DNA of 64,000 bases, taken from Bradyrhizobium sp. 200 (lineage in GTDB: Bacteria; Pseudomonadota; Alphaproteobacteria; Rhizobiales; Xanthobacteraceae). Made by a program: the position numbers and the translations under genes. This document shows positions 2,114 through 17,275 of this stretch, piece by piece. The notes under the pieces are model-generated. The model searched no databases and was not told the DNA's origin. It worked only from the letters and a program-made list of their open reading frames with translations. The first letter of the stretch is position 1; each line of letters opens with the position of its first letter. Location of the stretch: assembly GCF_023100945.1 (NCBI RefSeq), contig NZ_CP064689.1, forward strand, positions 3,702,001-3,766,000. Direction: 5' to 3'.

Positions 2114-2175
2114 GCCGTCATTGCGAGCCAACGGGTCGCGCGAATGCGCGCCCGATGACAGGCTCCGCGAAGCAA
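2114..2175. repeat. degenerate copy of the short palindromic 'gcgagc' repeat
   Basis: The stretch begins TCATTGCGAGCCAACGG and runs to GCGAAGCAATCCAT. Both halves are the arms of the dispersed element seen better at 56829-56882 and 59400-59475. It fills the gap between the cupin gene and guaA. It explains why the guaA frame can be read upstream of its real start. Confidence 0.65.
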
Positions 2176-2317
2176 TCCATCGCGCGGCTTCGCTCCAGTC
2201 AATCCAAATTGTGTCAACAATACTTACCTAATTTGGGTTTGTCCATGCCGTCAGAAGAATGTGGGCTGGCTGTTTCTCGCGGTTGCGAGGCCGCTCCCCG
2301 TCGCGTATCTGCTTGCC

Positions 2318-3913
2318 ATGACAGCCGCACAGAAAGCCCGCGAGCAGACCACCTCAGTGGCCTCGGCGCATGACAAGATTCTGATTGTCGACTTCGGCAG
2401 TCAGGTGACGCAGCTTATCGCGCGAAGGGTGCGTGAGGAGGGCGTCTATTCCGAGATCGTGCCGTTCCAGAAGGCGGAATTAGCCTTCGACGAGATGAAG
2501 CCGAAAGCGGTGATCCTCTCCGGCGGTCCGGAATCGGTGCATGAAAAAGGCTCGCCCCGCGCGCCGCAGAAAATCTTCGATTCCGGCGTTCCCGTGCTCG
2601 GCATCTGCTACGGCCAGATGACCATGGCCGCCCAGCTCGGCGGCGAGGTCGAAGGCGGCCACCACCGCGAATTCGGCCGCGCCGATGTCGAGGTGAAGGC
2701 CGCAAGCTCGCTGTTCGAATCCACCTGGGCGATGGGCGAGAAGCATCCGGTGTGGATGAGCCATGGCGACCGCATCACCAAAATGCCGCCGGGTTTTACG
2801 GTCGCCGGCGTTTCGCCGAACGCGCCGTTCGCGGTGATCCAGGACGAGAAGCGCAAATATTACGGCCTGATGTTCCACCCCGAAGTCGTGCACACGCCCG
2901 ACGGCGCCAAGCTGATCCGCAATTTCGTCCGCAAGGTCGCCGGCCTCACCGGCGACTGGACCATGCGCGCGTTTCGTGAAGAGGCGATCGAAAAAATCCG
3001 CGCGCAAGTTGGCAAGGGCAGGGTGATCTGCGGCCTTTCCGGCGGCGTCGATTCCGCCGTCGCCGCGGTCTTGATCCATGAGGCGATCGGCGACCAGCTC
3101 ACCTGCGTGTTCGTCGACCACGGTATGCTGCGGCTCGACGAAGCCAAGACCGTCGTCGACCTGTTCCGGCATCACTACAACATTCCGCTGGTGCACGTTG
3201 ACGCATCGAAGCAGTTCCTCGGCGAACTCGCAGGCGTCAGCGATCCCGAGGCGAAGCGCAAGACCATCGGCCGCCTCTTCATCGACGTGTTCGATGCCGA
3301 AGCGAAAAAGCTCGGCGGCGCGGATTTCCTCGCCCAAGGCACGCTCTATCCCGACGTGATCGAGAGCGTCTCCTTCACCGGCGGCCCGTCGGTGACCATC
3401 AAGTCGCACCACAATGTCGGCGGTCTCCCCGAGCGCATGAACATGAAGCTGGTCGAACCCTTGCGCGAACTGTTCAAGGACGAGGTCCGCGTCTTGGGCC
3501 GCGAGCTTGGCCTCCCCGAAATCTTCGTCGGCCGCCACCCGTTCCCAGGCCCCGGCCTCGCCATCCGCTGCCCCGGCGACATCACGAAGGAGAAGCTCGA
3601 CATCCTGCGCCAGGCCGACGCCGTCTATATCGACCAGATCCGAAAAGCCGGCCTCTACGACACCATCTGGCAAGCCTTCGCCGTGCTGCTGCCCGTGAAG
3701 ACCGTCGGCGTGATGGGCGACGGCCGTACCTACGAATACGTCGTCGGCCTGCGCGCGGTGACGTCGACTGACGGCATGACCGCGGACTTCTATCCCTTCA
3801 ACATGAAATTCCTCGGCGAAACCGCGACGCGGATCATCAACGAGGTGAAGGGTGTGAACCGCGTGGTGTACGACGTGACGTCAAAGCCGCCAGGGACGAT
3901 TGAGTGGGAGTGA
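2318..3913 (+). CDS. guaA: GMP synthase (glutamine-hydrolysing)
   Basis: GuaA converts XMP, ATP and glutamine to GMP, the last step of guanine nucleotide synthesis in the cytoplasm. The 531-residue protein has the class I glutamine amidotransferase domain first, with the triad C97 (GICYGQ), H187 and E189 (MFHPEV). The ATP-pyrophosphatase P-loop SGGVDS follows at 241-246, then the C-terminal dimerisation domain ending KPPGTIEWE. The start [10 protein letters not shown] was chosen because sequence further upstream is repeat-derived. The last nine codons are repeated at 9825-9851, marking this gene as the integration target of the island that follows. Confidence 0.97.
3884..3913 (+). other. attachment-site-like repeat, guaA-proximal copy
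   Basis: The last nine guaA codons plus stop (AAGCCGCCAGGGACGATTGA and onward). Twenty-six of the 27 sense bases recur in the same orientation at 9825-9851. The guaA 3' end is a known integration site for genomic islands, so this is probably one end of the insertion. Confidence 0.75.
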
Positions 3914-3983
3914 AGGGGAATCTGCGACCGCTGGCTGATCATAAATAAATAATGCGATACGGTGGATGCAATAAAGTGGCGCT

Positions 3984-6035
3984 ATGGCAGGAAAGCGACA
4001 GCACTATGTTCCCCGACTGCTTCAACGCGGCTTTCTCGATGATCCGTCGGATGAGGCCGAGCGGACTTGGTTGCACCGTCGCGGCGTCGATGCCAAGCTA
4101 GTCGGGATTCGCGATGTTGGAGTAGAAGACTGGTTCTATTCGCGGAGGTCGCTTGACGGCACGCCGACTCTCGACGATGCGATCACGGCCATTGAGCGCG
4201 ATTTGGGTACAAGCGTCGGGGCGCTGAGAGCGAGTGCACCCGGCAGTTCCATCGATGCAGTGGAGGCGGCCCGCACCGTCGTCCACTTGGTCATGCGGAC
4301 CGGCCATCTACGGGGTGTCATCTCCACCGGGATGACCAGCTTAACCAACGAAATCGGATCCTTGTTCACCGATCCAATGCGGCTGGGTGCGATGATCGGC
4401 CTCACCGGGCCGGCACTTGCGTCGGTCGTATTAGACACGATCCGCGACAAGGCCGCGGAGTTGGTACCGACTGGCATACCCGCGGCCTTTTCCGAGCGGC
4501 TGATGGCATTTGAATTGCGAGAGCTTGGCGAACGACTCGTCGAGCAGGCCGTCGCGATGCTTGGCCCGATCTTTCCGCAGCTGTTCAGCGGTCTTGCGGG
4601 AAAAGTGCGTGACGCTCATAATTCGATCTTGGCGACCTCACCCGAGAGCAACGGCTGGGTGACCGCGCTCGCCGCCTTTGAGTGGACCGTTGAAGCTGGT
4701 GTAGACCTGATACTACCCGATGCGGTCGCCCTCGCGCGCGAAGACGACGGTCCGCTTATGCCACTTCTGTTCACAAAGGCCAGAGACCTTCGCGCCGTAG
4801 TCATGCCGGTTTCACCGGATCGGATGCTGGTCGGACGTCCAGTCGGTAGCGCGCCGATCAATCTTGACAGGTTCAACACGCAGGCGGCGGCGAGTTGCGA
4901 AGCCTTCTTCATTAGCGCAAGGCCGTTCAACGGAGACAAGCTAAACGCTCTCATCGGTTCCGCATTGGCCAATGCGATTGAGAATACGATTTCGACGGCG
5001 ATACGCGAAGCTGAACAGGTTCGGACGACAGCCGGTCTGGTGATTGCTCCAGCCAAAACCCATGCGATCACGCAGCAAGGATTCTCGTTCAGCGTTCGGC
5101 TCGCCGACTTCGGTGACGATGTTCTCGCCAAGGAATTTGCGGCAGTACTCGATGGTGTGGTCGGCGCGCTTATCCCGAGTCTTCCATTGCATGAATTGGA
5201 CGGCTTCACCCTAGCAGTCGACTATCACGACGCACTAGCGGCACTTGATCGTGGCGACCCCAATCTGCCGCGGGTCACCAGCCGCGTGCTGGGCTATGGC
5301 CTAGGCGTGGCTAGTCCTGTCGCCGTGATCCGTGACGGCGTCCGCAAAAAGCATCTCGTCGTCTCTGCAGTGCTCGCTGAGATGTGGTTGTCGCCAGACG
5401 CCGACGTACGGGCGGCCGGTCTTCACACCCTTGTCAATATGCTTGCAGGGATCGCGCATTGGACGCGATATGCTGCCAAGCAGGAAACCGGCTTTACGCC
5501 CGGCGCTATGGAGCGCGAACTACATTCCGCGGTTGCCGCGGCGCCCGCTCACTATTGGAGCGCACGCCAAGCCGCCTTCGTTAAGCCCGACCAGGGAAGA
5601 GTCTACGCCGAGCTGGTCCTCGACAGCCTCGACTTCGCCGAGCGCGAGATCGCGAAGGAGCGCGCCCGCATCCCGGACAAAGGCGGCGTCGGCTATACCA
5701 CAATGCGCGCGCTAGAATGCGTGTCGGCCATCCTCAGCCATGCTGCTGATTGGCTGGGGCACCACGACGGAATCGCCGAAGGTCAGACGTTCGCAGGCAT
5801 CGATTTGCGCGCGCGACTGAAGGCGCGCGGCTTGGACCGCTGGATCGAGTTATTCGGCCGAGATCTCGCCGCCTGCTACGGCCCTGACGATGCTCTCAAC
5901 TTCGAGCTGGTGACTAGGCTCAGCCCGCATGTCGAACGGCTGTTCTGGAGCCTAGGCATCTATTGCTGGCCCGAGGAAAACCATGTCCGCTGCTTGGTTA
6001 CCGACCAGTTCTTTCTCCCGCCGGACCTGCCCTGA
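3984..6035 (+). CDS. DUF4238-domain protein
   Basis: A 683-residue protein of unknown function. The N-terminus KRQHYVPRLLQRGF (residues 4-17) is the hallmark of the DUF4238 family, whose members are scattered in accessory regions. No transmembrane segment or signal peptide is obvious, so it is probably cytoplasmic. The family core normally occupies about 250-300 residues, so the C-terminal half (SLDFAEREIAKERARIPDKG and beyond) may be a second domain I do not recognise. An A/T-rich stretch (ataaataaataatg, 3941-3954) precedes it and could hold its promoter. It is the first gene of the guaA insertion. A defence role is only a guess from location. Confidence 0.7.
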   Translation: MAGKRQHYVPRLLQRGFLDDPSDEAERTWLHRRGVDAKLVGIRDVGVEDWFYSRRSLDGTPTLDDAITAIERDLGTSVGALRASAPGSSIDAVEAARTVVHLVMRTGHLRGVISTGMTSLTNEIGSLFTDPMRLGAMIGLTGPALASVVLDTIRDKAAELVPTGIPAAFSERLMAFELRELGERLVEQAVAMLGPIFPQLFSGLAGKVRDAHNSILATSPESNGWVTALAAFEWTVEAGVDLILPDAVALAREDDGPLMPLLFTKARDLRAVVMPVSPDRMLVGRPVGSAPINLDRFNTQAAASCEAFFISARPFNGDKLNALIGSALANAIENTISTAIREAEQVRTTAGLVIAPAKTHAITQQGFSFSVRLADFGDDVLAKEFAAVLDGVVGALIPSLPLHELDGFTLAVDYHDALAALDRGDPNLPRVTSRVLGYGLGVASPVAVIRDGVRKKHLVVSAVLAEMWLSPDADVRAAGLHTLVNMLAGIAHWTRYAAKQETGFTPGAMERELHSAVAAAPAHYWSARQAAFVKPDQGRVYAELVLDSLDFAEREIAKERARIPDKGGVGYTTMRALECVSAILSHAADWLGHHDGIAEGQTFAGIDLRARLKARGLDRWIELFGRDLAACYGPDDALNFELVTRLSPHVERLFWSLGIYCWPEENHVRCLVTDQFFLPPDLP

Positions 6036-6135
6036 TGAGGCGGCGCGTGGCCGCCTTGCGGCGCGGCACAAATTTCGCGGCAGGATTGTATGTGGCTGGT
6101 TGTGTAAGTTGGGCGGGTTAGGCTAGTTTCTCGGT

Positions 6136-6564
6136 ATGACACAGCTTGCAGTCGAGTCTGACGGGATTGTTTTTGGCTACACCGCCGGTATGAAGCGGAC
6201 ATATAAATCGATGAACTATCATCGACAGCCAAAGCTCAAGCCGGATAAAACCAAATGGGATTCGGCAATTAGCCGTCCCGCTGAGTATAGCTATTTTGAA
6301 CAATGTGAGGCGAAGTCTTGGCTTAGCCAATCGGGCGACTACTGGTGGGTCTCGCAAGATGCATTGACCACTGTAGGACTCGGCGGGGAGCGACTGGCGT
6401 TCTTTCCTATTTGTCACAATCATCCTGGCCCGTGGCATGGTTACCCTGTTTCGGCCATCTCGGATCGAGACTACGAGGTACCTAAGGAGTTAATCGAGAA
6501 GTGGGAAGATGATGAGACCATCGACGATCTCATCGCCGGTCGCATGCGGAAGGGCAAGCTATGA
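6136..6564 (+). CDS. hypothetical protein, first gene of a two-gene cassette
   Basis: A 142-residue protein I do not recognise. It is rich in aromatic and charged residues, with a central segment CHNHPGPWHGYPVS (about residues 94-107) whose histidines could bind metal or act in catalysis. The acidic C-terminus (EKWEDDETIDDL) is followed by basic RMRKGKL. No membrane segment. An internal methionine (MKRTYKS, residue 19) is a possible alternative start. Its stop overlaps the next start (ATGA), so the two are almost certainly co-translated. Codons are visibly richer in A/T than in the core genes, consistent with acquired DNA. Confidence 0.6.
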   Translation: MTQLAVESDGIVFGYTAGMKRTYKSMNYHRQPKLKPDKTKWDSAISRPAEYSYFEQCEAKSWLSQSGDYWWVSQDALTTVGLGGERLAFFPICHNHPGPWHGYPVSAISDRDYEVPKELIEKWEDDETIDDLIAGRMRKGKL

Positions 6565-7745
6565 GACTCAAACGGCTCATTCTGCCAGGTCGGTTTGTGG
6601 AGGCCTACGTCTACTTTGATTTTGCGTGGCTCTTTTCCAAGGACGGGGTTGTTCGTGCCTTCGACCTCGCGAGATACTGTCAGGAACGCCTGAACGGCGA
6701 GGGAAGCGTTGCTGCCGCATTATTCTCTAACAATCAACTCTTGTCGCAGCACCAGAGAAGCGATGGACAGGAATCGTCGGATCTCACGCAGCTTCTTTCG
6801 AGCGAAAAGCCCATTGAGGTTACGGCCAAGGATGTTGATGGCTATTCCTATATATTCCACACCGAAGGGGCGTGCCGCTCGGTGCTCGACGTTCGATTTT
6901 ATAACGGGCGTGCCTTCGTAGGTGCAGATAATGGCATACGGCAGTTTTTTGCTTTGGGGCGCGATGACCTTCAGGAAAGCAAACTCGGACGCTCCGCTGC
7001 CGAAAGTCTTCACGATCAGCGCGTCTCCGAATTACCAGCGCGGCAGATTCGAGGACGATTGGGTGCCGTAGCTGCTGCTTGTGGCCCAGCCGGAGGCATC
7101 GTTGGATTCGGCGCTGGGACGGACGATCGCGATTGGCGTATCAGCTTTCAGCCATTTACGGAAAGATGTTACGGGATCGAACTCAACGGACGTGCCGTTT
7201 CGAGTCTCGTTAATTCAACAGCCATAGAGTTATATGGTGTCGGTCGCCAAGAGGTGCAGCCGCGGGACGCTAGAGTTCTTTCGGATGATGAGTATGATGG
7301 TTTGGAATTGACCGACGTTAAGGGGCGAGGTGTCGGCGTGCAGGACGCTCAACTGAATCAGGTGATCACTAGATTGCCGGGCGCTGTTCGTACCTTTCTC
7401 TTTAAGGAGACATTCTGGGTCTTAGCTCAAGACGGATTCTACTATTTCCGATTTATTGCGAACGGTGAGATCACCGTGCCGCGCCGGCCGACGGTGAAGG
7501 CGCCTTCCACGCGGGTGTTATCTGCTTCTGGGAGCGCAGCGGGTCTGATAGTGGAATCTGATGATGAAGTCTTCTTACTGAATGACCACCGCTGGACTAA
7601 TCTAGTCTCTGAGCCGGTTCACTCTGTGCGCGGCTATCCAAGCTCTAAGCGTTACAAGCGTTTAATCACGGCTGTGACACGAGACCGCGTGGAACTGGCG
7701 GCGGTACTTAATAGCCCGAAGACAGCTCCCGCTGCCCAACGCTGA
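6561..7745 (+). CDS. hypothetical protein, second gene of the two-gene cassette
   Basis: A 394-residue protein of unknown function, translationally coupled to the preceding gene. The sequence alternates short hydrophobic strands with turns (VLDVRFYNGRAFVGADNGI; VRTFLFKETFWVLAQDGFYYF; AAGLIVESDDEVFLLNDHRW). This suggests an all-beta, possibly propeller-like fold; that is an impression, not a domain match. No signal peptide or clear membrane helix. Relaxed codon use and its position between the guaA end and the vapBC repeats mark it as island cargo. It could be an immunity or defence partner of the 142-residue protein, but nothing in the sequence proves this. Confidence 0.6.
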   Translation: MRLKRLILPGRFVEAYVYFDFAWLFSKDGVVRAFDLARYCQERLNGEGSVAAALFSNNQLLSQHQRSDGQESSDLTQLLSSEKPIEVTAKDVDGYSYIFHTEGACRSVLDVRFYNGRAFVGADNGIRQFFALGRDDLQESKLGRSAAESLHDQRVSELPARQIRGRLGAVAAACGPAGGIVGFGAGTDDRDWRISFQPFTERCYGIELNGRAVSSLVNSTAIELYGVGRQEVQPRDARVLSDDEYDGLELTDVKGRGVGVQDAQLNQVITRLPGAVRTFLFKETFWVLAQDGFYYFRFIANGEITVPRRPTVKAPSTRVLSASGSAAGLIVESDDEVFLLNDHRWTNLVSEPVHSVRGYPSSKRYKRLITAVTRDRVELAAVLNSPKTAPAAQR

Positions 7746-7842
7746 CGACCTGCATTTGTGGTTTGTGGCGTCGCTATGGATTGCGTCGTATCACTCGCGA
7801 AGACAACGTTGCACCGCCGCCGCGACAAAACCGGCACGATAG

Positions 7843-8365
7843 GCAAATCACTTCTGATTTTCCGAAATCGTGTCAATCCCGTAAATCAAAAATATTCTGC
7901 TTTCGTTCTTACCCAAATCAGCCGCATAACTCCGCCCGTCTCACGGCGGATGAGGGGCGCTTCGCGGTCGTCACGAACGTGCGGTGAGATGCGGTGGACG
8001 CTGAAGGCGCGCTAGACGTACGCGCAGGAAGCGTACGACGAAGTCGTGTGGTTCGGGCGCCGCGGTGCTGGCGTTAAGCGTGCGATAAGAAGCGCAGGCG
8101 ACGGAGGCAAAAGAGCCGTTCTCCGGGAAGAGCACGAAGTAAGCCGTAAAGCCATTGCGCAGGGAAGGCCGGAGTGTTCCCGCTGCCCTGTATGCTCGTG
8201 TGCACTTTTGTTTGCGCAAATCGCACGCGAGACCGCGGGTGCAGCAAGCACCCGGTCTTCCCTGCGCCCTCTAATGATTCAGAGGGTCTCTGGATGACGC
8301 AAAGCTCGGGCGCTGCTCGCCGCGAGGATGCGGACTCACACCCTCATGCTGTTTGAAATGTAGAT
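7843..8365. repeat. ~0.5 kb dispersed repeat, copy A
   Basis: Runs from GCAAATCACTTCTGATTTTC to GCTGTTTGAA, and is repeated in direct orientation at 9268-9797 with most bases identical. It contains several hairpins: a 7 bp CGTACGC/GCGTACG stem near 8015-8035, a long stem with arms at 8157-8173 and 8251-8267, and CCCTCTAATGATTCAGAGGG near 8268-8287. It carries no credible gene. Similar sequences are, as I recall, common in Bradyrhizobium genomes. Confidence 0.8.
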
Positions 8366-8376
8366 CAGTCATAGAG

Positions 8377-8398
8377 CGGAATAGCGCAGCGTATTTCG
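8377..8398. repeat. small palindrome related to that at 22614-22635
   Basis: CGGAATA, an 8 base loop, then TATTTCG, preceded by GAG. A near-identical hairpin with perfect 7 bp arms lies at 22614-22635. It is probably a short dispersed repeat. There is no U-tract, so it is not a good terminator. Confidence 0.45.
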
Positions 8399-8447
8399 CC
8401 AATCGGCCACGATCGGCGCGGCGCGCATCGTCATTGAGCGCTACGAT

Positions 8448-8852
8448 CTATCCACCACGAAACGGATTGGCGATGCGTAATCCCTCGTCGAGCTTCATGC
8501 CGTGCTGCATATCCTCCGACCAGAGCGTGTCGCAACCGGCGTCAAGTGCCGAGGCGGCAATCATCGAGTCATAGATTGAAAGGCCGTATCGCTCCGCCAG
8601 TCGAAGTCCCGTTTCGTGGGTCTCGACGGTGAGGGGATGAACCGTCAGCAGGCCTCGCAACATGTTGAGGAATGCATGCGTCTCGTCCCAGGACATCTGC
8701 ATTTTCCTGCGCGCGACGTTGGCAAGTTCGTTCAGAACTTGCACGCTGATTGAACCACCCTTGGCAAGAGTAGCTTCCGCCCGATCGGCCTTCGTCACAT
8801 CGCCTGATGCGAGGTAGACGAGGACGTTGGTGTCGAAGAAACTACCGGGCAT
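8448..8852 (-). CDS. vapC: PIN-domain toxin of a VapBC pair
   Basis: A 134-residue PIN-domain protein, expected to be a Mg-dependent RNase that blocks growth when free of its antitoxin. The acidic pocket is complete: D7 (FFDTN), E42 (NELANV), D95 (SIYDSMIAA) and D114 (WSEDM). Its start lies inside the end of the antitoxin gene (11 base overlap), the normal arrangement for coupled expression. It sits in the guaA island between two long direct repeats. Such pairs often stabilise mobile DNA. Confidence 0.9.
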   Translation of the reverse strand: MPGSFFDTNVLVYLASGDVTKADRAEATLAKGGSISVQVLNELANVARRKMQMSWDETHAFLNMLRGLLTVHPLTVETHETGLRLAERYGLSIYDSMIAASALDAGCDTLWSEDMQHGMKLDEGLRIANPFRGG

Positions 8853-9072
8853 TCGCCTCGTCCCGGTCGAACTTGAAGTCGGCAGGGAGGCGACCGCGGA
8901 AGGTGCGAAGGCGCTTCAACCACTCGTCGCGTCCGGGCTTGCGCGCTATGCTGAACTGTCGTCTCTCCGCGACGTGGATTTCGATCTCGTCGCCTTCCTT
9001 GAGGCCGAGCGCTTCGACCACGACGGCTGGAAGGCGAACGGCAAGGCTGTTCCCCCATTTTGCGACCTGCAT
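8842..9072 (-). CDS. vapB: AbrB/MazE-type antitoxin of the VapBC pair
   Basis: A 76-residue antitoxin. The N-terminal swapped-hairpin DNA-binding domain reads MQVAKWGNSLAVRLP, then LGLKEGDEIEI. The C-terminal tail (KRLRTFRGRLPADFKFDRDEANAR) should wrap and inhibit the toxin. The start at 9072 was chosen because GGGAG lies just upstream and because longer starts (9090, 9108) run into the probable operator at 9094-9119. It should autoregulate as a complex with VapC. Confidence 0.88.
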   Translation of the reverse strand: MQVAKWGNSLAVRLPAVVVEALGLKEGDEIEIHVAERRQFSIARKPGRDEWLKRLRTFRGRLPADFKFDRDEANAR

Positions 9073-9093
9073 GCCAGCTCTCCCGTCCATTTG

Positions 9094-9119
9094 GATATAC
9101 ATGTTCATAAATGTATATC
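9094..9119. promoter_or_regulatory. vapBC operator (inverted repeat)
   Basis: Perfect 9 bp arms GATATACAT and ATGTATATC separated by 8 bases, just upstream of the vapB Shine-Dalgarno. An AbrB-type antitoxin dimer typically binds this kind of site, so autorepression is inferred. Confidence 0.7.
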
Positions 9120-9128
9120 TAATAATTG

Positions 9129-9193
9129 TGAAGGTCAAGGAGGCTGCGACGGGGGGCGCATACGAATATGTCGTCGGCCCGCCTGCGGTCACC
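9129..9193 (+). pseudogene. internal guaA fragment (remnant)
   Basis: Bases 9161-9193 match guaA 3731-3763 at 27 of 33 positions. In the guaA-like frame they read YEYVVG, two changed residues, then AVT, against [11 protein letters not shown] in GuaA. Weaker similarity reaches left to about 9129 (VK...G). Only this piece is recognisable. It supports repeated recombination at guaA during formation of the island. Confidence 0.55.
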
Positions 9194-9267
9194 TTGATTG
9201 GCAGGGGATGGCTTCGCTTCGCTCCGCAAGGACGAAGTCGCTCATCGAGTGCGACAAGCTGGCCCGG

Positions 9268-9797
9268 GCAAATCACTTCTGATTTTCCGAAATCGTGTCA
9301 AGCCCGGATTCAAAAAATATTCCGCTTTCGTTCTCACCCAAATCAGTCGCATAACTCCGCCCGTCTCACGGCGGATGAGGGGCGTTGGCCATCGTCACGA
9401 ACGCGCGGTGAGATGCGATGGACGCGGATGGCGCGCTAGACGTACGCGCCGGACGCGTACGGCGAAGGCGTGTGGTTCGGGCGCCGCGGTGCTGGCGCTA
9501 AGTCCTGGAGAAGCGAAGCTTCTCGGGGGCGACGGAGGCAAAAGAGCCGTTCTCCGGGAAGAGCACGCTATAAGCCGTAAAGCCATTGCGCAGGGAAGGC
9601 CGGAATGCTCCCGCTGCCCTGTATGCTCGTGTGCATTTTTGTTTGCGCAAATCGCACGCGAGACCGCGGGTGCAGCAAGCACCCGGTCTTCCCTGCGCCC
9701 TCTGTCTTTCGAGAGGGTAAAATCAAAACAATAGCTCGGGCATTTCGTGCCGCGAGAACGTGGGTCCGTACCCACGCTGTTTGACAGTTGAATCAGA
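9268..9797. repeat. ~0.5 kb dispersed repeat, copy B
   Basis: Direct repeat of 7843-8365. The CGTACGCG/CGCGTACG stem is kept although its loop and base pairs differ from copy A. The long GCGCAGGGAAG/CTTCCCTGCGC stem is kept, and the last hairpin (CCTCT...AGAGG) has a changed loop followed by TAAAATCAAAA. An extra small hairpin (GAGAAGCGAAGCTTCTC) replaces a different sequence in copy A. The two copies bracket vapBC. Confidence 0.8.
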
Positions 9798-9824
9798 AGA
9801 ACCGCATTGCGTTCACGGACGAGC

Positions 9825-9854
9825 AAGCCGCCGGGGACGATTGAGTGGGAGTAG
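9825..9854 (+). other. attachment-site-like repeat, distal copy of the guaA 3' end
   Basis: Encodes the last nine GuaA residues (KPPGTIEWE) plus a TAG stop with no guaA body in front of it. 26 of 27 sense bases equal guaA 3884-3910. This is the expected footprint of site-specific integration at guaA and gives the right boundary of the island. Confidence 0.75.
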
Positions 9855-10018
9855 GGGGCAAGTGGGCCCGGGCCGAAAGGGCCTGACTCCGGCAGGGCCT
9901 CCGCAAGGGTCAAGGGCCGGTGGCGACTACAGAAGGGCACGCGTCAAAAAATAATCGCGTGCTGTCGGATCTTGTCGATCTGGCTCGTCCTCAGGTTTGG
10001 ACCGCCACAAGGAGACAG

Positions 10019-10441
10019 ATGATGCGGGTGATGGTGTTCGGAAAAGCGACTGACGGCAGCGAAAAAAGCGCGCCCCCCACGAAAGAGGCGTTCGCGGCGA
10101 TGGACCAGTTCACCGAGGAGCTGGTCAAGGCCGGAATCATGGTGGCCGGCGCCGGCCTCCAGAACAACGCCCAGGCCAAGCGCATCACGTCAGATGGTTC
10201 GAGCAGCAAGGTCATCGACGGGCCGTTCGCCGAGACCCGCGAACTGGTCGCCGGCTTCATGATCTGGCAGGTCAAGGACATGGACGAGGCCGTGGCCTGG
10301 GCGAAGCGCAATCCCATGTTAGGCCCGAGCGGGGTCGAAATCCGCCCGTTCTACGAGGCGGCGGATCTGGCTGAGTATCTGACGCCCGAGGAGCTCTCGA
10401 CGCCCCGCGACGGCGAGCGCGGGAAGCTCGGCGTCGCCTGA
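10019..10441 (+). CDS. YCII-related (DGPF-domain) protein
   Basis: A 140-residue YCII/DGPF-domain protein. The signature VIDGPFAETRELVAGF lies mid-protein, followed by the usual helix MDEAVAWAKRNP. The fold is a ferredoxin-like dimer of unclear chemistry; members are often encoded beside sigma factors or small reductases. AAGGAG lies 6-10 bases before the ATGATG start. It sits directly right of the island end and 79 bases ahead of a RibD-like reductase in the same direction, so the two may be co-transcribed. Confidence 0.85.
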   Translation: MMRVMVFGKATDGSEKSAPPTKEAFAAMDQFTEELVKAGIMVAGAGLQNNAQAKRITSDGSSSKVIDGPFAETRELVAGFMIWQVKDMDEAVAWAKRNPMLGPSGVEIRPFYEAADLAEYLTPEELSTPRDGERGKLGVA

Positions 10442-10520
10442 ACCCGTCGGCTGGATCGGCGGCCATCCGTCTCGGCCGGCCGCGAGATTTCGTTTCTTCT
10501 GGAAAGCTGAGGAAATCGCT

Positions 10521-11057
10521 ATGGCGAAGATCGTATTTGGAATGAACCAGTCCCTGGACGGCTACGTCGACCACGACCATCCCGAATTCAGGCCAAGCCC
10601 CGCGCTCTTTCGTCACTTCATCGAGCAAGTGCGCGGCCTGGCGGGCAGCGTGTACGGCCGCCGCATGTATGAGGTGATGCGCTATTGGGACGAAGACCAT
10701 CCTGAGTGGGACGCCGCGGAATATGACTTCGCAGCGGCGTGGCGGAACCAACCGAAGTGGGTCGTGTCGCGCTCCCTGGAGTCAGTCGGCCCCAACGCCA
10801 CGCTTGTCGGGGATGACCTCGAGGCGGTGATACGGGGGCTGAAGGCTCAGCGCGCTGGGGAGATCGACGTCGCCGGACCAGACCTGGCGCGAAGCCTGAC
10901 CGATCTTGGTCTTATTGATGAGTATCAACTCTACCTCCACCCCGTCGTGTTGGGTCGCGGCAAGCCGTTCTTCTCCGGCCCCCGGCCGCCGCTCCGCCTT
11001 GTGGCCAGCGATCGAATTGGCGAGGACGTGATCAGGTTGACGTACGTTCCTGCCTGA
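10521..11057 (+). CDS. dihydrofolate reductase family protein (RibD C-terminal-like)
   Basis: A 178-residue protein with the RibD C-terminal/DHFR fold: KIVFGMNQSLDGYVD at the N-terminus, the GRRMYEVMRYW loop, and the closing ELILHPVVLG-type strand seen here as YQLYLHPVVLGRGKPFF. Probably an NAD(P)H-dependent reductase of unknown substrate in the cytoplasm. It follows the YCII gene. It is not the riboflavin enzyme, which is encoded at 29370. Confidence 0.85.
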   Translation: MAKIVFGMNQSLDGYVDHDHPEFRPSPALFRHFIEQVRGLAGSVYGRRMYEVMRYWDEDHPEWDAAEYDFAAAWRNQPKWVVSRSLESVGPNATLVGDDLEAVIRGLKAQRAGEIDVAGPDLARSLTDLGLIDEYQLYLHPVVLGRGKPFFSGPRPPLRLVASDRIGEDVIRLTYVPA

Positions 11058-11118
11058 TTGCGGGACTCGCCCGACGAACGGCATCGACGCGTCAGGTACT
11101 CCTCGCAGGCGGGCCGTT

Positions 11119-11721
11119 TCAAATCTCCGACTTCAGGTCGGCGAACGCCTCTTTTAGATAAGTGGCGATAGGTCGCTTCCCCTGGTCGCGGTTCCAGTTG
11201 TCGATCGCAAGACGAAATGCTCCGATCGACATCATGGCGACAATGCGCAGCGCAGGCTGCCGCTTCTGCTGCGGCCACATCTGGCAGAGCGCGTCGAATA
11301 CCGCTTGTTCTTTCTCTACATATTTCGCCTGGTGTCGCATGCGAAGGGACTCGGTCGCGCACATCAGGCGTTCGATCTCCCTGGCTTGCTTGTAATCGGC
11401 CTGAAAGCGGATCGTCAGCCCCAATAAGGCGTTCTTCACCGCGTTGAGTGGTGACTGTTTGGTCGATTGCTCCAGCACGGCGCCTCGCAGGGTCTCGGTG
11501 AAACCGCCGTCCTGCCACGCCAGCAGAATCTCTTCCTTGGACTTGAAGTAATAGAAGAACGTCCGCCGCGAGATCCCCGCTGCCTCCGCGATCGCGTCGA
11601 GCGTGGTGGCCTCATAGCCGTTGGTCAGGAACAGTTTCAGGCCTTGCTCGGCGATGCGATGCAGCGTCTCGCGCCGCTTCCGTTCGCGCAGGCCTTCCTC
11701 CTTGGGGGGCGAACTTTTCAT
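11119..11721 (-). CDS. TetR-family transcriptional regulator
   Basis: A 200-residue TetR-type repressor. The HTH is typical (LDAIAEAAGISRRTFFYYFKSKEEIL, about residues 38-63), followed by a C-terminal helical ligand domain. The start at 11721 is preferred over 11778 because the longer start would run through the operator at 11757-11771. It is divergent from a secreted hydrolase/lipoprotein pair, whose promoter lies over two matching operators, so it probably represses that pair and itself. Confidence 0.88.
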   Translation of the reverse strand: MKSSPPKEEGLRERKRRETLHRIAEQGLKLFLTNGYEATTLDAIAEAAGISRRTFFYYFKSKEEILLAWQDGGFTETLRGAVLEQSTKQSPLNAVKNALLGLTIRFQADYKQAREIERLMCATESLRMRHQAKYVEKEQAVFDALCQMWPQQKRQPALRIVAMMSIGAFRLAIDNWNRDQGKRPIATYLKEAFADLKSEI

Positions 11722-11756
11722 GGCCAGTTCTGGCACGAATTTATTCTCTTGCAAAA

Positions 11757-11771
11757 TTACACTCAGTGCAA
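11757..11771. promoter_or_regulatory. TetR operator 1
   Basis: TTACACTCAGTGCAA, a near-palindrome (TT-CAC-N3-GTG-AA) in the divergent promoter region. A second copy lies 24 bases away. Probable binding site for the adjacent TetR regulator. Confidence 0.6.
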
Positions 11772-11780
11772 TACACAAGA

Positions 11781-11795
11781 TTACACCCGGTGCAA
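11781..11795. promoter_or_regulatory. TetR operator 2
   Basis: TTACACCCGGTGCAA, identical to operator 1 except in the central spacer. The 24 base spacing puts two dimers on nearly the same DNA face. Confidence 0.6.
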
Positions 11796-11905
11796 ATTAT
11801 GTTCAAGGTGTGTTCATGGAGAGCAGGGTGGGCGGCGATACTCCCTCGCGGCGTGTTCAATCCTCTCTCGCGGGTGGTCAGAGCGACGCAATAGTACCGG
11901 TCAAC

Positions 11906-12940
11906 ATGACGCGACGGCGCCTCGGCGCCATGCTGCTCGCCGTTGCAGTTACAGCCGCGGTTCCTGTAAATCCAGCGCGAGCGCAGTCCGCCGCGCCCGC
12001 TTTCGTTGACTTTGACTGGGTCGACTCCGCGCGTTCGCGTGCCGTTCCGGCGCGCCTGCATTGGCCCGCGAGTATCGCGCCGGGGTCGCGCGTGCCGCTC
12101 ATCGTGTTCTCCCATGGCATGGGCGGCTCCCGCCGGGGATACAGTTATCTGGGCCAATATTGGGCTGCGCGCGGCATTGCCAGTCTGCATGTTCAGCATA
12201 CTGGCAGCGACTCGTCGCTCTGGATGGGCAATCCTCTTGCCGTCGTGGACCGTTTGCAGCGAGCGGCGCACGAGAGCGAGGCGCTTGCGCGGGCCTGGGA
12301 TCTGCGCTTCGCTCTGGATCGCCTGCTGTCGAGCGGCGCCGGCGCCCAGATCGACCGTCGGCGTATCGTCGTGGCCGGCCATTCGTATGGCGCAAACACG
12401 GCGCTTCTTGCGGTCGGCGCCCGCGTGCTGCGCGAAGGGCAGTGGATCGAGGCCCGTGATCCGCGCTTTGCGGCGGCGATCGTGATCTCTGCGCCGCCGT
12501 TCTACGGCGAGTCCGATCTTGCTTCGGTGCTGAGCAAAATCACGGTTCCGAGCCTGCACGTGACCGCGACCAACGATGTCATCCAAATTCCCGGATACCA
12601 CTCGCCCGCCGCTGATCGGCTAGCCGTCTTCAACGCTATTGCCACACCGCGCAAGCTGCTTGCCGTGTTTGAAGGCGGGTCGCACAGCATCTTTACCGAT
12701 CGCTCGTTCACAGGCGGTCCGGCTCTAAACCCGAAAGTGAAGGCTGCTACGGCTGAACTCACTCTGGCTTTCCTCGATCTGGCCTTCGACGGTAACGGGA
12801 CGACGCTGACGCGCTGGAATGCGACTTGGGAGCCAATCCTGGCATCGGCGCCCGGCACCGCGCTTTCTCCTGTTCCGGTCGCGCGTTCCCGCCGCATGGT
12901 CCAGGGATCGGCGGCTGGCCTGGTTGCCGCCGCGCCATGA
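11906..12940 (+). CDS. exported alpha/beta hydrolase (PAF-acetylhydrolase/dienelactone-hydrolase-like)
   Basis: A 344-residue hydrolase. The start at 11906 puts a good signal peptide at the N-terminus (MTRRRLGAMLLAVAVTAA, cleavage after ARA), so a periplasmic or secreted enzyme is likely; a start at 11816 would add 30 residues before it. The nucleophile elbow is GHSYGAN, the oxyanion strand region reads LIVFSHGMGGS, and the acid and histidine are probably in ATNDVI and GGSHSIF. Probably an ester hydrolase. Controlled by the divergent TetR. Its stop overlaps the lipoprotein start (ATGA). Confidence 0.8.
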   Translation: MTRRRLGAMLLAVAVTAAVPVNPARAQSAAPAFVDFDWVDSARSRAVPARLHWPASIAPGSRVPLIVFSHGMGGSRRGYSYLGQYWAARGIASLHVQHTGSDSSLWMGNPLAVVDRLQRAAHESEALARAWDLRFALDRLLSSGAGAQIDRRRIVVAGHSYGANTALLAVGARVLREGQWIEARDPRFAAAIVISAPPFYGESDLASVLSKITVPSLHVTATNDVIQIPGYHSPAADRLAVFNAIATPRKLLAVFEGGSHSIFTDRSFTGGPALNPKVKAATAELTLAFLDLAFDGNGTTLTRWNATWEPILASAPGTALSPVPVARSRRMVQGSAAGLVAAAP

Positions 12941-13785
12941 GATGGGTCCTGGTACCGACGCTAAGCCTGATGGCTGCTGGTTGCGCGACCGCACCGCTGG
13001 AGCGGTCCGGGTCATTAGCCTCCTACGACAATCTGACGCCGTCCGATGGGGTTCTGACCAAGTCGCAGGTTCGGGTCAGCAAAGCTGATGTTCTCGGCGC
13101 GAAGACCGCGCGGATCGAGCCAACCGCATTCGCGGTAGCCGCGGCAAGCGAGCCGTTCTCGGACAAGCAGCGCAGCCTGATCAAGAACGCGGTAAACCGA
13201 GCGATGTGTTTTGCGCTGAGCGAGCGCTTCCGAATTGTAGAACCGACGGAAGCGGCGGACTTGAGTGTCCGGGCGGTCGTTACCCACATTACGCCGACCG
13301 ATGCGACCGCCGCCGGCGTCTCCAAGGTCGCGAGCGTTGTACCGTCTGTCGTTGCTCCCGGTGTGCCCATCCCTGTGCCGCGGCTTCCGATAGGACTCGG
13401 AAGCCTGTCCGTAGAGGCCGAGGCCCGCGATCGCAGCGGCAGCCAAAAGGCTGCCATGATCTGGGCGCGCGGTGCGAATTCCTTCACCAGCGCTCCGCGT
13501 GTATCGAACGACGGGGATGCCTATGATCTCGCCAGCGCTTTCGGAGCCGATTTCGGGAAATTGCTTGTTACCGCCGAGAGTCCGTTCGGGAAGGTCTCGG
13601 CGCCGCCATCAATCGATAGCTTGAAGGCCTCGCTCGGCGGAGCGCCGAAGCAGGCGATTTGTGAAGCATTCGGCCGCGCGCCGGGACTGCCCGGCATGAT
13701 CGGCGAGAGGATCGGGCTGCCGCCGGATTGGACCGACCGGGGTGCGTCGGCGAACGCAGTGTCGGAAGCGTCGGTTACCGATTAA
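12937..13785 (+). CDS. DUF3313-like lipoprotein
   Basis: A 282-residue outer-membrane or periplasmic lipoprotein. The start, overlapping the hydrolase stop by four bases, gives a signal peptide with lipobox LMAAGC, so C16 should be acylated. The body resembles DUF3313 proteins (LTPSDGVLTKSQVRVS; then VTHITPTDATAAG). No catalytic motif. Coupled to the hydrolase, so the two probably act together at the cell envelope. Confidence 0.75.
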   Translation: MRWVLVPTLSLMAAGCATAPLERSGSLASYDNLTPSDGVLTKSQVRVSKADVLGAKTARIEPTAFAVAAASEPFSDKQRSLIKNAVNRAMCFALSERFRIVEPTEAADLSVRAVVTHITPTDATAAGVSKVASVVPSVVAPGVPIPVPRLPIGLGSLSVEAEARDRSGSQKAAMIWARGANSFTSAPRVSNDGDAYDLASAFGADFGKLLVTAESPFGKVSAPPSIDSLKASLGGAPKQAICEAFGRAPGLPGMIGERIGLPPDWTDRGASANAVSEASVTD

Positions 13786-13930
13786 GCTAGCAACGCCGCC
13801 AGAGGCCTTGCCTTGCACGAACAATCGCACGCAGATCTGCCATTCTGGTGGAGGGGCTGCGGCCCGCTGCCTGTCGTGGCATGTTCGGCGCAATGTTCGA
13901 AGGCTTCACCACATTTGCGGATCGGGCGGC

Positions 13931-15334
13931 ATGTCTGACGAGTTGAACTGGCTTTCCGCCCGCGAGATGGCGCGGCGCTTCGCCGAGGGCGAGCTGTCGC
14001 CGGTTGATGTGCTGGAAGCCACCCTGGCGCGATTGCACACGGTCAATCCGGCTCTCAATGCCACCTGCCTGCTGGATGAAGCGCAGGGCCGGCGCCTGGC
14101 CGTAGAGTCGGCGGAACGGTGGCGTCGCGGCGCACCGCTCGGACCGCTCGACGGCGTGCCGGTCGCCATCAAGGACACGGCGCATGTCGCCGGCTGGCCG
14201 ACGCGCATCGGCTCGCATGCGACGCTAGCTGTGCCGAGCACGGAGGATACGCCCGGCGTCACCCGCTTGCGCGAGGCCGGCGCCGTGTTTTTCTGCAAGA
14301 CAACAACGCCCGAATTCGGTTGGAAGGGCATCACCCATGGCCCGCTGAGCGGCATCACGCGTAATCCCTGGGATGTTTCCCGCACGCCCGGCGGCTCCAG
14401 CGGCGGCTCGGCCGCACTGGTGGCGGCGGGCGTTGTACCGCTGGCCACCGGCGGCGATGGCGGCGGCTCGATCCGCATCCCGGCGGCGTTCAGCGGCGTG
14501 TTCGGACTGAAGCCGAGCTACGGCGTGGTGCCGAATTTCTTGGGACCGATGGGCACGCTCGCGGTGTATGGCGGCCTGTCGCGCGATGTCGCTGACAGCG
14601 CCTTGATATTGAACGTGCTCACGCGGCCGGACGCGCGTGATTCCTTTGCCATTCCCTATCGCGGCATCGATTATCTCGACGGCCTCGATAGCGGGGTGGC
14701 GGGGATGCGGATCGCATGGTCGCCCGATCTCGGTTTCCCGATCGCCGATCCCGCCGTCGTGGCCGGCATGCAGCCGGCCATCGACGCGCTGGTGAAGGCC
14801 GGTGCTGACGTGCAAAATGTCTCTCTCGATCTGTCCGGTGCGCAGCCGGCGCTGGAAGCGATCTGGGGCGTATCGCATGCCGCGTTGGTGCGTGATTTCG
14901 ACGGCGCGCAGCTAGCGGCGCTCGATCCGGGCCTGCTGCGGCTGGTCGTCGCCGCCCAAAATATTTCCGCGATGCAGTTGCAGGCGGCCTATGCCGAGAT
15001 GCGCGCGCTGAGCCAGAAGATGCAGTTGTTTCATCAGGAGTATGATCTGCTGCTGACGCCGACCGTTCCTATCACCGCGTTCGCTGCCGGCGTCGACACG
15101 CCCGACGCCACGCGCTTCCCGCAATGGTTCGACTGGACGCCGCTGACATGGCCGTTCAACCTCACCCGTCAGCCTGCGGCCTCGGTACCTTGCGGATTTG
15201 TCGAGGGCCTGCCGATCGGATTGCAGATCGTGGGACCGATGTTCGCCGAGCAGAACATTTTTCGGGCCAGCCGCTGCGTCGAACTGGCCTGCGCCACCGG
15301 TGTGCGGCCGAACCTTGGAAGCGCGCGGCCATGA
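13931..15334 (+). CDS. amidase (amidase-signature family)
   Basis: A 467-residue amidase-signature enzyme with the full Ser-cisSer-Lys triad: K81 (VAIKD), S156 (GGSSGGS) and S180 (GGDGGGSIRIP). The 24 residue spacing between the serines matches the family. It hydrolyses an amide in the cytoplasm; the substrate is unknown. It is a stand-alone gene without gatB or gatC nearby, so it is unlikely to be the tRNA amidotransferase subunit. Start chosen at MSDELNWLSA, the usual N-terminus for this group. Confidence 0.88.
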   Translation: MSDELNWLSAREMARRFAEGELSPVDVLEATLARLHTVNPALNATCLLDEAQGRRLAVESAERWRRGAPLGPLDGVPVAIKDTAHVAGWPTRIGSHATLAVPSTEDTPGVTRLREAGAVFFCKTTTPEFGWKGITHGPLSGITRNPWDVSRTPGGSSGGSAALVAAGVVPLATGGDGGGSIRIPAAFSGVFGLKPSYGVVPNFLGPMGTLAVYGGLSRDVADSALILNVLTRPDARDSFAIPYRGIDYLDGLDSGVAGMRIAWSPDLGFPIADPAVVAGMQPAIDALVKAGADVQNVSLDLSGAQPALEAIWGVSHAALVRDFDGAQLAALDPGLLRLVVAAQNISAMQLQAAYAEMRALSQKMQLFHQEYDLLLTPTVPITAFAAGVDTPDATRFPQWFDWTPLTWPFNLTRQPAASVPCGFVEGLPIGLQIVGPMFAEQNIFRASRCVELACATGVRPNLGSARP

Positions 15335-15367
15335 CCGAAGCCAAGGCCTAGAGCGCTTCGAATCCAC

Positions 15368-15700
15368 TCACCTCGAAAACTGCGGACACCGATGAACGTA
15401 GTCCCAGGGAATATCATGCACGCAGGTGAAACGAAGGTCGTCCGATTGTTTTAGTGGCGGCGGCGGAGCCTCTACGACAGTCGGTCCGTCGTCCGGCAGG
15501 CCATAGAAGACGCCGCCGAAACCGGCAAATCCCCGGTGATGGTGTTGATGCATCGATCGGCCGGGTGCCGATGGGAAAGCCGGACGCGATGGAGCAACCC
15601 CCGCGCCGCGCGCTGGTCCGGGATCGGCAAATGTCTCGCCAGCGGCGAGGACAAGCGCTACTGCACTGAGAGAGGCGATAAACGTTGTTCTATAAGTCAT
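15368..15700 (-). CDS. small exported protein of unknown function
   Basis: A 110-residue protein with a Sec signal peptide (TFIASLSAVALVLAAGETFA) and a proline- and histidine-rich mature part (MHQHHHRGF) containing two late cysteines (CVHD and HRCPQ). Start at 15700 rather than 15718 because GGTGAG precedes it. A periplasmic role, perhaps metal binding through the histidines, is speculation. Confidence 0.65.
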   Translation of the reverse strand: MTYRTTFIASLSAVALVLAAGETFADPGPARGAGVAPSRPAFPSAPGRSMHQHHHRGFAGFGGVFYGLPDDGPTVVEAPPPPLKQSDDLRFTCVHDIPWDYVHRCPQFSR

Positions 15701-16019
15701 GGCACTCACCCATTTCACAGGTTACTGAGCAGCATTCCCAAGAACGCTAAGCCGTGCTTTTCGTGCCCGCAAAGCCATACTTAATTATTAGTTAAGGCGT
15801 AATCTTAATGGAGTGGCCGTTCGCGCCGCCGCTCGCCGGCCACGCTTTGGGTCGTACCCATCGGATTTGGGGTGTCCACGTCTTATCCGGTAGAGGGCCA
15901 ATCTCCGAAATGCCAGTCGAAGGCATCGGATGGCACGAGAAGTTGAAAAGCGTGATCTGGCCCTATATGACCCTGACGAGCACAGACGATCGCGTCGGCG
16001 TGGGGCATCGGTAGTCGGA

Positions 16020-16760
16020 ATGAGCGACATCTACGACCCGCAGTTCGTGAAGGCCGTGTTCGATCGCTGCTCGGATCGGTACATCACCTTCAGCCTGGTC
16101 TGCTCGTTCGGTTTCACCGAGCGCTGGCGCCAGCAATGCGTGGCGGCGATGCCGGCGCTTCTCCCTGGCGGCGCGCGCGGCTACGACCTGATGGCGGGGA
16201 CCGGCGAGGTCTGGCCGCATCTGTTGAAGCGTTTTGGCGATATCGGCGCGATCACCGCCGTCGACATCTCCTCCGGCATGCACCGCCGCGCCATGGAGCG
16301 GCTTCACGCCCAACGTGCCCACCGGATCGAATTCATCGAGGACGACGTGCTGGCGAGCGATCTGCCGTCGGAGAGCGCGGACTTCGTCATCTCCACCTTC
16401 GGGCTGAAGACATTCAATCCCGAGCAGCACGCGCGGCTCGCCGCCCTGATCGCGCGCGTGCTGAAGCCCGGCGGCGTCTTCTCCATGATCGAGGCCTCGG
16501 ACCCGAAAGGGTGGTGGCTGCGGCCGCTGTACCTGTTCCATCTCAAGGTGTTTCTGCCGCTCATCGAACGCATCTTGCTTCGCGGTGCGCAGGATTTTGC
16601 GATGATCGGCACCTACAGCACCAACTTCGGCAGCGCCGCAGAGCTCGCCGCCATCTTGCGCGAGCACGGCCTCGATGTGGAATTCTCGAAATACTTTTTT
16701 GGTTGTGCCACCGGCGTGGCTGGCCGCAAGATCGCGTCGATTTACGGAACGAGCGGGTAA
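16020..16760 (+). CDS. UbiE-like class I SAM-dependent methyltransferase
   Basis: A 246-residue methyltransferase. The SAM site is YDLMAGTGEVWP, then AVDISSGM and the LKPGGVFSMIE strand. The C-terminal part (YSTNFGSAAELAAILREHGL) resembles UbiE/COQ5 quinone methyltransferases. It lacks quinone-biosynthesis neighbours, so it should not be called ubiE. Start at MSDIYDPQFVK, where homology begins. Confidence 0.8.
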   Translation: MSDIYDPQFVKAVFDRCSDRYITFSLVCSFGFTERWRQQCVAAMPALLPGGARGYDLMAGTGEVWPHLLKRFGDIGAITAVDISSGMHRRAMERLHAQRAHRIEFIEDDVLASDLPSESADFVISTFGLKTFNPEQHARLAALIARVLKPGGVFSMIEASDPKGWWLRPLYLFHLKVFLPLIERILLRGAQDFAMIGTYSTNFGSAAELAAILREHGLDVEFSKYFFGCATGVAGRKIASIYGTSG

Positions 16761-16795
16761 GTAAAGACGTGAACCGGATAACGCATGATCCTGAG

Positions 16796-17275
16796 ATGAC
16801 TGCACGGATGGCCGAGCCCTCGGAGACTGCCGTGTTGGCGCGGCTCTGGTATGACGGCTGGCAGGATGCCCATGCCGCGATCCTGCCGGCTGCGCTGGCA
16901 CGTGCGCGCACGCCCGAAAGCTTTGCCGAACGGATGGCTGCCGCGCTCGCCGATGTGCGGGTGATCGGGCCGCCAGGTGCGCCGCTGGGCTTTGCGATGC
17001 TGAAGGGCGATGAACTCTACCAGTTCTACGTGGCGTCGGAAGCGCGGGGCGCCGGAGTTGCCGCCGCGCTCATGGCGGACGCGGAAGCGCAGTTGTCCGA
17101 TCGCGGCGTCGAGACGGCGTGGCTCGCCTGCGCGATCGGCAATGCGCGCGCGGCCAGATTCTACGAGAAGAGCGGATGGTATCTTGCCAAGACGATGGTC
17201 AGCCGCCTCGACACCGGCGATGGTTTTTTCGATCTCGAAGTCTGGCGTTATGAGAAGCGTCTGGTATACCGTTGA
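16796..17275 (+). CDS. GNAT-family N-acetyltransferase
   Basis: A 159-residue acetyltransferase. The acetyl-CoA loop is ASEARGAGVAAALM (R/Q-x-x-G-x-A type) and the end FYEKSGW is the usual GNAT motif B. Substrate unknown. Three in-frame starts exist (GTG 16769, ATG 16796, ATG 16808); 16796 is chosen as an ATG outside the conserved fold. It follows the methyltransferase closely in the same direction. Confidence 0.85.
   Translation: MTARMAEPSETAVLARLWYDGWQDAHAAILPAALARARTPESFAERMAAALADVRVIGPPGAPLGFAMLKGDELYQFYVASEARGAGVAAALMADAEAQLSDRGVETAWLACAIGNARAARFYEKSGWYLAKTMVSRLDTGDGFFDLEVWRYEKRLVYR

What the first reader, a model, noticed from the sequence alone, without database searches (positions are those of the whole stretch)
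3884..9854. Integrase-less genomic island at the guaA 3' end, bounded by a 27 bp duplication
The last nine guaA codons (3884-3910) recur with one mismatch at 9825-9851, same orientation, with no gene body in front. Between them lie only accessory genes with codon use unlike the core. The guaA 3' end is a known integration site (established knowledge). No integrase is visible, so the element is immobile or needs one in trans.
Basis: partly seen in the sequence, partly recalled or inferred. Interest (0 to 1): 0.75.

Follow-up and report, generated by a model that had tools for sequence, protein, structure and literature searches.

The report
Displaced gene end beside guaA
In this Bradyrhizobium-type bacterium foreign genes have piled up behind the gene guaA, and the short duplicated guaA end looks like an older end of the gene pushed outward by a later insertion; some relatives show the same layering, in one case around a virus-defence system.

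Summary
The duplication is real: 26 of 27 bases of the guaA 3' end recur at 9825-9851, same strand, nowhere else in the 9.49 Mb genome. The copy is larger than stated: guaA homology spans 9799-9854, and another guaA piece lies at 9146-9197, parted from it by a dispersed ~530-bp repeat. Hotspot and missing integrase hold. But it does not look like a plain integrase island: 12 candidate attR sites in relatives with a guaA integrase share only ~10-14 bp with guaA, and those islands' ~180-bp left arm is absent here. In 21 of 160 genus genomes, 26 second copies lie 1.2-42 kb downstream of guaA, same strand; 33 measured tails run 27-401 bp. What follows one tail (892 bp, 92%) follows intact guaA in another strain, so tails appear to be displaced older guaA ends. 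The interval is a mosaic; YCII/RibD are accessory too; a block shared by most relatives resumes near 20.5 kb. Cargo: a DUF4238-like protein, a two-gene pair (one a predicted beta-propeller), a PIN/AbrB toxin-antitoxin pair. One sister interval holds Gabija. I favour homology-anchored (RecA) stacking, which is inferred; a decayed integrase island is the main rival.

The parts
2318..3913 (+). guaA (GMP synthase), intact; its 3' end is the insertion hotspot
3884..3910 (+). guaA 3' end, reference copy of the 27-bp duplication
3984..6035 (+). 683-aa protein, weak DUF4238 N-terminal match; function unknown
   Evidence: Pfam PF14022 E 1e-5, just under the cut-off; 181 database relatives among the candidates scored; model pTM 0.60, no PDB match at E <= 0.001
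6136..6564 (+). 142-aa protein overlapping the next ORF by 4 bp; probable operon pair
   Evidence: linked pair also in G161, 79% identity
6561..7745 (+). 394-aa protein, predicted beta-propeller; found in 3 of 265 genus genomes, own included
7842..8350 (+). copy 1 of the dispersed ~530-bp repeat (end approximate)
8448..8852 (-). PIN-domain toxin-like gene
   Evidence: Pfam PF01850 E 2e-13
8842..9072 (-). AbrB/MazE-type antitoxin-like gene (listed ORF 8842-9276; the start at 9072 is my choice)
   Evidence: Pfam PF04014 E 6e-13
9146..9197 (+). guaA fragment (guaA bases 1403-1453), same orientation
   Evidence: 81% over 52 bp, E 1e-6
9267..9798 (+). copy 2 of the dispersed ~530-bp repeat, apparently inserted into the guaA tail (inferred)
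9799..9854 (+). displaced guaA 3' end (contains the 27-bp copy 9825-9851)
   Evidence: same junction in G124 and G125
10022..10441 (+). YCII-like protein; accessory in this genus
10521..11057 (+). RibD C-terminal-domain protein; accessory, DNA matches of 82-85% on eight rhizobial plasmid records

Best explanation
The 3' flank of guaA is a layered insertion hotspot. Some layers were laid down by guaA-specific tyrosine-recombinase islands (seen in relatives). The layer in the window belongs to a second class without integrase: incoming DNA is spliced in directly behind guaA so that an intact guaA stays on the left, while an older guaA 3' end, of any length from tens to hundreds of bases, is pushed to the right together with whatever used to follow it. 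The repeat at 9825-9851 is such a displaced end. The most likely splice is homology-anchored recombination (RecA): homology in the guaA 3' region on one side, and either illegitimate joining on the other or single-crossover entry of a circle carrying a guaA tail. Loss of guaA function would be selected against, so only products with an intact guaA persist. The resulting direct repeats, and the dispersed 530-bp repeat, allow further swapping, which would explain the mosaic. Shown by comparison: same-strand guaA tails of variable length downstream of guaA, no tyrosine recombinase in the intervals examined, mosaic blocks, and in two clear cases an old guaA junction behind the tail. Inferred: that the window's tail arose the same way, RecA, and the form of the incoming DNA.
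For: 26 extra copies in 21 of 160 genus genomes, all on guaA's strand and contig and downstream of it, 1.2-42 kb away (guaA itself checked); a 22nd genome, G035, has two such tails on a contig where guaA was not found. 33 measured tails have 5' breakpoints from 27 to 401 bp, 3' ends at or near the stop codon (G023a stops 18 bp short), unlike the ~10-14 bp of candidate attRs of integrase islands. What follows tail G111a continues into what follows intact guaA in L109 (892 bp past the stop, 92%); tail G111b likewise matches G078 (395-bp alignment, 83%); four further, weaker or shorter cases among 33 tails tested. In G106 a 324-bp tail is followed by a decayed N-terminal piece of a guaA-type integrase: an older integrase island displaced with its guaA end, or one that landed on the tail. 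No tyrosine recombinase in 15 fetched tail intervals, while the same HMM finds it in the G104 island, nor in the 20-kb stretches of G010, G015, G019, G020, G023. The window's left junction lacks the integrase-island arm.
Against: guaA's 3' end shows no excess phylogenetic discordance, and in four tails compared the tail was not closer to the other lineage than the intact end was: no clear sign that incoming DNA brought its own guaA end. Best matches are mixed: tails of G020, G023 and G015 match their own guaA best, those of the window, G019 and L109 (first) match other strains better. The window's own tail is contiguous only over 37-58 bp, the fragment at 9146 rests on one 52-bp alignment, and G124 and G125 share the tail without it. 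Nothing following the window's tail matched sequence behind an intact guaA. Int-bearing and tail-bearing genomes do not overlap in the census, but 0 of 10 int-bearing genomes is not significant (P about 0.2, my estimate). The only other genus genomes with the 394-aa gene are both int-bearing, which links this cargo to integrase islands. Only tyrosine recombinases were sought systematically.
Confidence: 0.5

Rival explanations
1. A decayed or cis-mobilizable guaA integrase island: an integrase-type island entered at guaA, lost its integrase and left arm, and the 27-bp copy is its attR; it could be moved by an integrase supplied in trans.
For: Genuine integrase islands exist at guaA in relatives; arm-bearing islands with a broken (L123) or undetected (L113) integrase exist; the 142/394-aa pair occurs in int-bearing G161 on a contig with guaA-core-like sites, and a fragment lies 42 kb behind guaA in int-bearing G278; the tail contains the core motif.
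Against: No left arm at the window's junction, and elsewhere in the window only chance-level scores, best E 1.6; guaA homology upstream of the core is far longer than in 12 candidate attRs; right junction shared with G124 and G125 but cargo not.
Confidence: 0.28
2. An undetected recombinase (another tyrosine, serine or transposase type) crosses over upstream inside guaA and its elements carry a replacement guaA 3' end, as for icd-targeting phages (recalled).
For: Would give long displaced ends and an intact guaA; several tails start 139-229 bp from the end.
Against: Breakpoints range from 27 to 401 bp without a common site; no 3'-end discordance in guaA; many intervals are only 1.1-3 kb and hold few genes.
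Confidence: 0.12
3. Local segmental duplication of the guaA end first, with cargo and repeats dropping in later by unrelated events.
For: Several tails match their own genome's guaA best (G020, G023, G015); the dispersed repeat did land next to the tail.
Against: Sequence behind two tails (plus weaker cases) is what follows intact guaA in another strain; no tandem duplication closer than ~1.2 kb was seen in the 160 genomes.
Confidence: 0.1

Closest known systems
guaA-specific integrase islands and ICEs (including IntG of Mesorhizobium tripartite ICEs; PMC8627217, passages read)
   Same: Same target, the guaA 3' end; accessory cargo behind guaA; same core motif as the islands compared here
   Different: Integrase and left arm absent; displaced guaA end longer than the short attR core. 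Kinship of the Bradyrhizobium integrases to IntG was not tested
CIMEs (cis-mobilizable elements; concept recalled and seen in passages of PMC3146451)
   Same: Integrase-less cargo between two direct repeats of the target, stacked arrays
   Different: No att arm on the left here, and repeat length varies from case to case
Dehalococcoides ssrA genomic islands (PMC3146451, passages read)
   Same: Stacked islands at one gene end, 15 of them described there as lacking an integration module, direct repeats within 100 kb downstream
   Different: There the repeat is a fixed ~20 bp with a shared motif upstream; here 27-401 bp with scattered breakpoints
Homology-facilitated illegitimate recombination (PMC3240628, start of abstract in a listing only)
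   Same: One homologous anchor plus one illegitimate joint could place new DNA next to guaA and duplicate part of the anchor
   Different: Described for linear DNA in a few species; not shown for this locus

Membership tests
guaA integrase genomic island | tyrosine recombinase directly downstream of guaA | tested here: not met
   no integrase in the interval; none of this family found in the genome at E <= 1e-60, 6 of 23 candidates scored
guaA integrase genomic island | ~180-bp left arm after the guaA stop codon | tested here: not met
   HMM from 20 left ends: no hit at the window's junction at E <= 10; arm found in L113 and L123
guaA integrase genomic island | second copy of the short guaA core downstream | tested here: inconclusive
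   core present inside a 58-column tail; 12 candidate attRs in 9 of 19 int-bearing genomes searched share only ~10-14 bp
CIME | flanked by attL and attR | tested here: inconclusive
   direct repeat present, attL arm absent
CIME | no integration or transfer genes | tested here: met
   five ORFs of the interval: no recombinase or relaxase by Pfam
CIME | excision or accretion by a resident element | not testable with these tools
   needs an experiment
ssrA-type stacked island array | direct repeats of one fixed length | tested here: not met
   33 tails, 27-401 bp
type II toxin-antitoxin (PIN with AbrB/MazE-type antitoxin) | PIN toxin gene overlapping an AbrB-type antitoxin gene | tested here: met
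   Pfam hits over cut-off for both; activity not tested

The most novel reading that the evidence does not exclude
Bradyrhizobium uses the guaA 3' end as an integrase-free cassette dock: homologous recombination keeps adding small cargo units, including anti-phage systems such as Gabija, next to an intact guaA, each time pushing out the previous guaA end, so the tails form a stratified record of acquisitions.
Probability: 0.3. Interest if true: 0.7.

Novelty: new variant of a known kind. Interest (0 to 1): 0.5.

Why it matters
If right, some defence and accessory genes need no integrase or transposase to gather at a hotspot; an essential gene's end is enough, and displaced ends give each insertion a footprint that can be counted and ordered. 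It also warns against reading every guaA-end repeat as an att site: tail length and the left arm separate the two classes.

Tried and rejected
Rejected: the 27-bp copy as attR of the known guaA integrase; YCII as core flank. Import of the guaA 3' end as a detectable genus-wide signal: negative. A clean guaA-YCII junction was sought among YCII carriers and not found. The 24 phage-integrase matches of the own genome were not tested for guaA specificity. No Rfam match at E <= 1 in window 3500-21500; no PADLOC match for five cargo ORFs; no NCBIfam match for the DUF4238-like, 142-aa, 394-aa and PIN proteins. The DUF4238-like model gave no PDB match at E <= 0.001; the 394-aa model resembles many beta-propellers, none closely. 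Weak sequence matches of the 142-aa protein to picornavirus VP2 (best E 0.001) were judged chance and not followed.

Limits. Serine recombinases and transposases were not searched for systematically. The tail census covered 160 of 265 genus genomes (157 with any match) and, by its 26-base pattern with 3 mismatches, cannot see tails much shorter than about 24 bp, so att cores of integrase islands are invisible to it; matches on other contigs, on the other strand or far away were set aside. The leave-one-out test of the integrase HMM missed 4 of 24 training domains (L001, L012, L022, L024); L001, L012 and L024 I had probably read on the wrong strand. Of 64 island ORFs scanned together only the 25 commonest of 66 families were shown.
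Full report
What is there. guaA ends at 3913. Its last 27 coding bases recur once in the 9.49 Mb genome, at 9825-9851, same strand, one mismatch. Against relatives' guaA genes the homology runs from 9799 to 9854, and a second guaA piece (bases 1403-1453) lies at 9146-9197. Between the pieces sit about 70 bp of other sequence and a ~530-bp dispersed repeat, 9267-9798; searching the genome with 9267-9870 gave 53 hits. So the copy looks like a guaA tail of perhaps 200 bp into which the repeat inserted; this is inference.

Cargo. Between guaA and the tail lie a 683-aa protein with a sub-threshold DUF4238 match, a 142-aa and a 394-aa protein overlapping by 4 bp, another copy of the repeat, and a PIN/AbrB toxin-antitoxin-like pair on the other strand. 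The 394-aa protein is predicted with good confidence as a beta-propeller (mean pLDDT 87.8). It was found in 3 of 265 genus genomes, own included. None of the five matched PADLOC. Functions of the first three are unknown.

The interval is a mosaic. In the 20-kb downstream stretches of 20 relatives, blocks of the window recur patchily; the first block found in most of them is 20561-21040 (15 of 20), while the amidase block 13831-15337 recurs in 4 and the block 11105-13799 in 1. The block from 9265 through the tail into YCII is shared at about 93-95% with G125 and, from 9641, with G124, whose cargo on the left is different. YCII at 78% or more occurs in 7 of 265 genomes.

Two classes of guaA insertions. 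Class one: a tyrosine recombinase directly behind guaA. It was found in 8 of the 80 named loci fetched with guaA (L112, L120, L126, L130, L138, L148, L161, L183; L154 carries a more distant one and L158 two weak pieces on the other strand), and a search with that of L126 rang in 20 of 265 genus genomes, of which 2 at only 47-48% identity and 4 as partial matches. In 18 of these 20 the integrase lies 213-313 bp from a guaA end; the exceptions are G187 (on another contig) and G218 (no guaA-end match). In 19 of them I looked for a 14-base core; 9 have, on guaA's contig and strand, 9.9-155 kb downstream, 12 further copies, which share only about 10-14 bp with guaA. These are candidate attR sites, not proven ones. 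Class two: guaA tails without integrase. In 160 genus genomes (157 with any match) a 26-base guaA-end pattern with up to 3 mismatches gave 26 additional same-strand copies 1.2-42 kb downstream of guaA in 21 genomes (guaA checked). G035 has two copies 1.3 kb apart but guaA itself was not found there. With six further tails found otherwise (G023a, G187, two in L109, L122, L125) and one of G035, 33 tails were measured: 27-401 bp, with scattered 5' breakpoints and 3' ends at or near the stop codon.

Which class is the window? An HMM of the ~180-bp left arm of class-one islands (20 sequences) was run on 73 left ends. It found its own members plus L123, which has a broken integrase piece, and L113, where none was detected; nothing at the window's junction (E <= 10) and nothing at E <= 0.001 among the tail-bearing genomes in the set. 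With homology over 58 columns and traces to 197 bp the window belongs to class two.

Tails look like displaced ends. For 33 tails I asked whether tail plus following sequence matches intact guaA plus following sequence elsewhere (73 left ends). G111a matches L109 (892 bp past the stop, 92%), G111b matches G078 (395-bp alignment, 83%); G093-L110 (69%), G177-G132 (72%), G132-L119 and L122-L119 (short) are weaker; the window's tail and the remaining ones had no match running across the stop. In G106 a 324-bp tail is followed by a decayed integrase start of the guaA type (34 aa, 62%), so a class-one island either was displaced with its guaA end or used the tail as a landing site.

What the intervals carry. 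Among ORFs scanned, Pfam and PADLOC recognise Gabija (GajA E 1e-233, GajB E 1e-240) with an Mrr-type nuclease in G111; a TIR-nSTAND1 protein in G023; an nSTAND3 protein in G124; two SNF2 helicases in G078; a CHAT-domain protein in G020; HNH nucleases in G132 and G145; other ORFs are ordinary enzymes or have no family. Thirty ORFs, chosen by hand, were scanned one by one; no test of enrichment for defence was made.

Mechanism. A 10-14 bp site-specific crossover cannot by itself leave tails of 100-400 bp. Homology-anchored recombination can. This step is inferred. Results against its simplest form, in which incoming DNA replaces the guaA end: guaA's 3' 192 bp show no more discordance than internal windows (56 genes), and tails are not closer to the other lineage than intact ends (four cases); which genome a tail matches best is mixed. 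The link of the 142/394-aa pair to int-bearing genomes keeps the decayed-island reading alive; whether the G278 fragment lies inside the integrase island is not shown, since no attR was found there, and in G161 the contig with the pair is not joined to guaA.

Literature. ICEs at guaA, and tripartite ICEs with an integrase for guaA, are known in Mesorhizobium (PMC8627217, passages read). Stacked islands at one gene end, some without integration module, are known at Dehalococcoides ssrA (PMC3146451, passages read). The listings of my searches (guaA with genomic island and integration; Bradyrhizobium with guaA and integrase, or island; GMP synthase integration hotspot; tripartite ICE with guaA; cis-mobilizable element with accretion; homology-facilitated illegitimate recombination) showed, in titles and abstract starts, no report of variable-length guaA tails; only open-licence papers are held and most listed papers were not opened. 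GMP synthase as an integration hotspot in general is recalled knowledge.

Noticed in passing
window 7842-8350 and 9267-9798: Dispersed ~530-bp repeat; the query 9267-9870 gave 53 hits in the own genome, it occurs near guaA in several relatives, and no Rfam family matches it.
   Followed up: partly
L251 (G111), interval between guaA and its 139-bp tail: Gabija pair (GajA, GajB) plus Mrr-type nuclease in a 5.5-kb interval behind guaA without a detected integrase.
   Followed up: partly
L260 (G114) 2163-3696: guaA followed about 30 bp later by a PIN/AbrB pair, then a second toxin-antitoxin-like pair (read by eye), then YCII, with no guaA tail found.
   Followed up: partly
G161:C68:166460-168028: Relatives of the 142/394-aa pair (the larger gene broken) on a contig with guaA-core-like sites at 157470 and 52251; the guaA contig ends before it.
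   Followed up: partly
L085 and L087, tails 5595 and 7723 counted from the guaA side: In G019 and G023 a guaA tail lies just behind an amidase gene whose homologue in the window (13831-15337) has none.
   Followed up: no
L245 (G035): Two guaA tails 1.3 kb apart on a contig where guaA itself was not found; the assembly is about 80% complete.
   Followed up: partly
window 42584-42661: tRNA-Pro (ggg), another usual kind of insertion site; its flanks were not examined.
   Followed up: no
window 6136-6564: 142-aa protein shows weak, probably chance, sequence matches to picornavirus VP2 chains.
   Followed up: no
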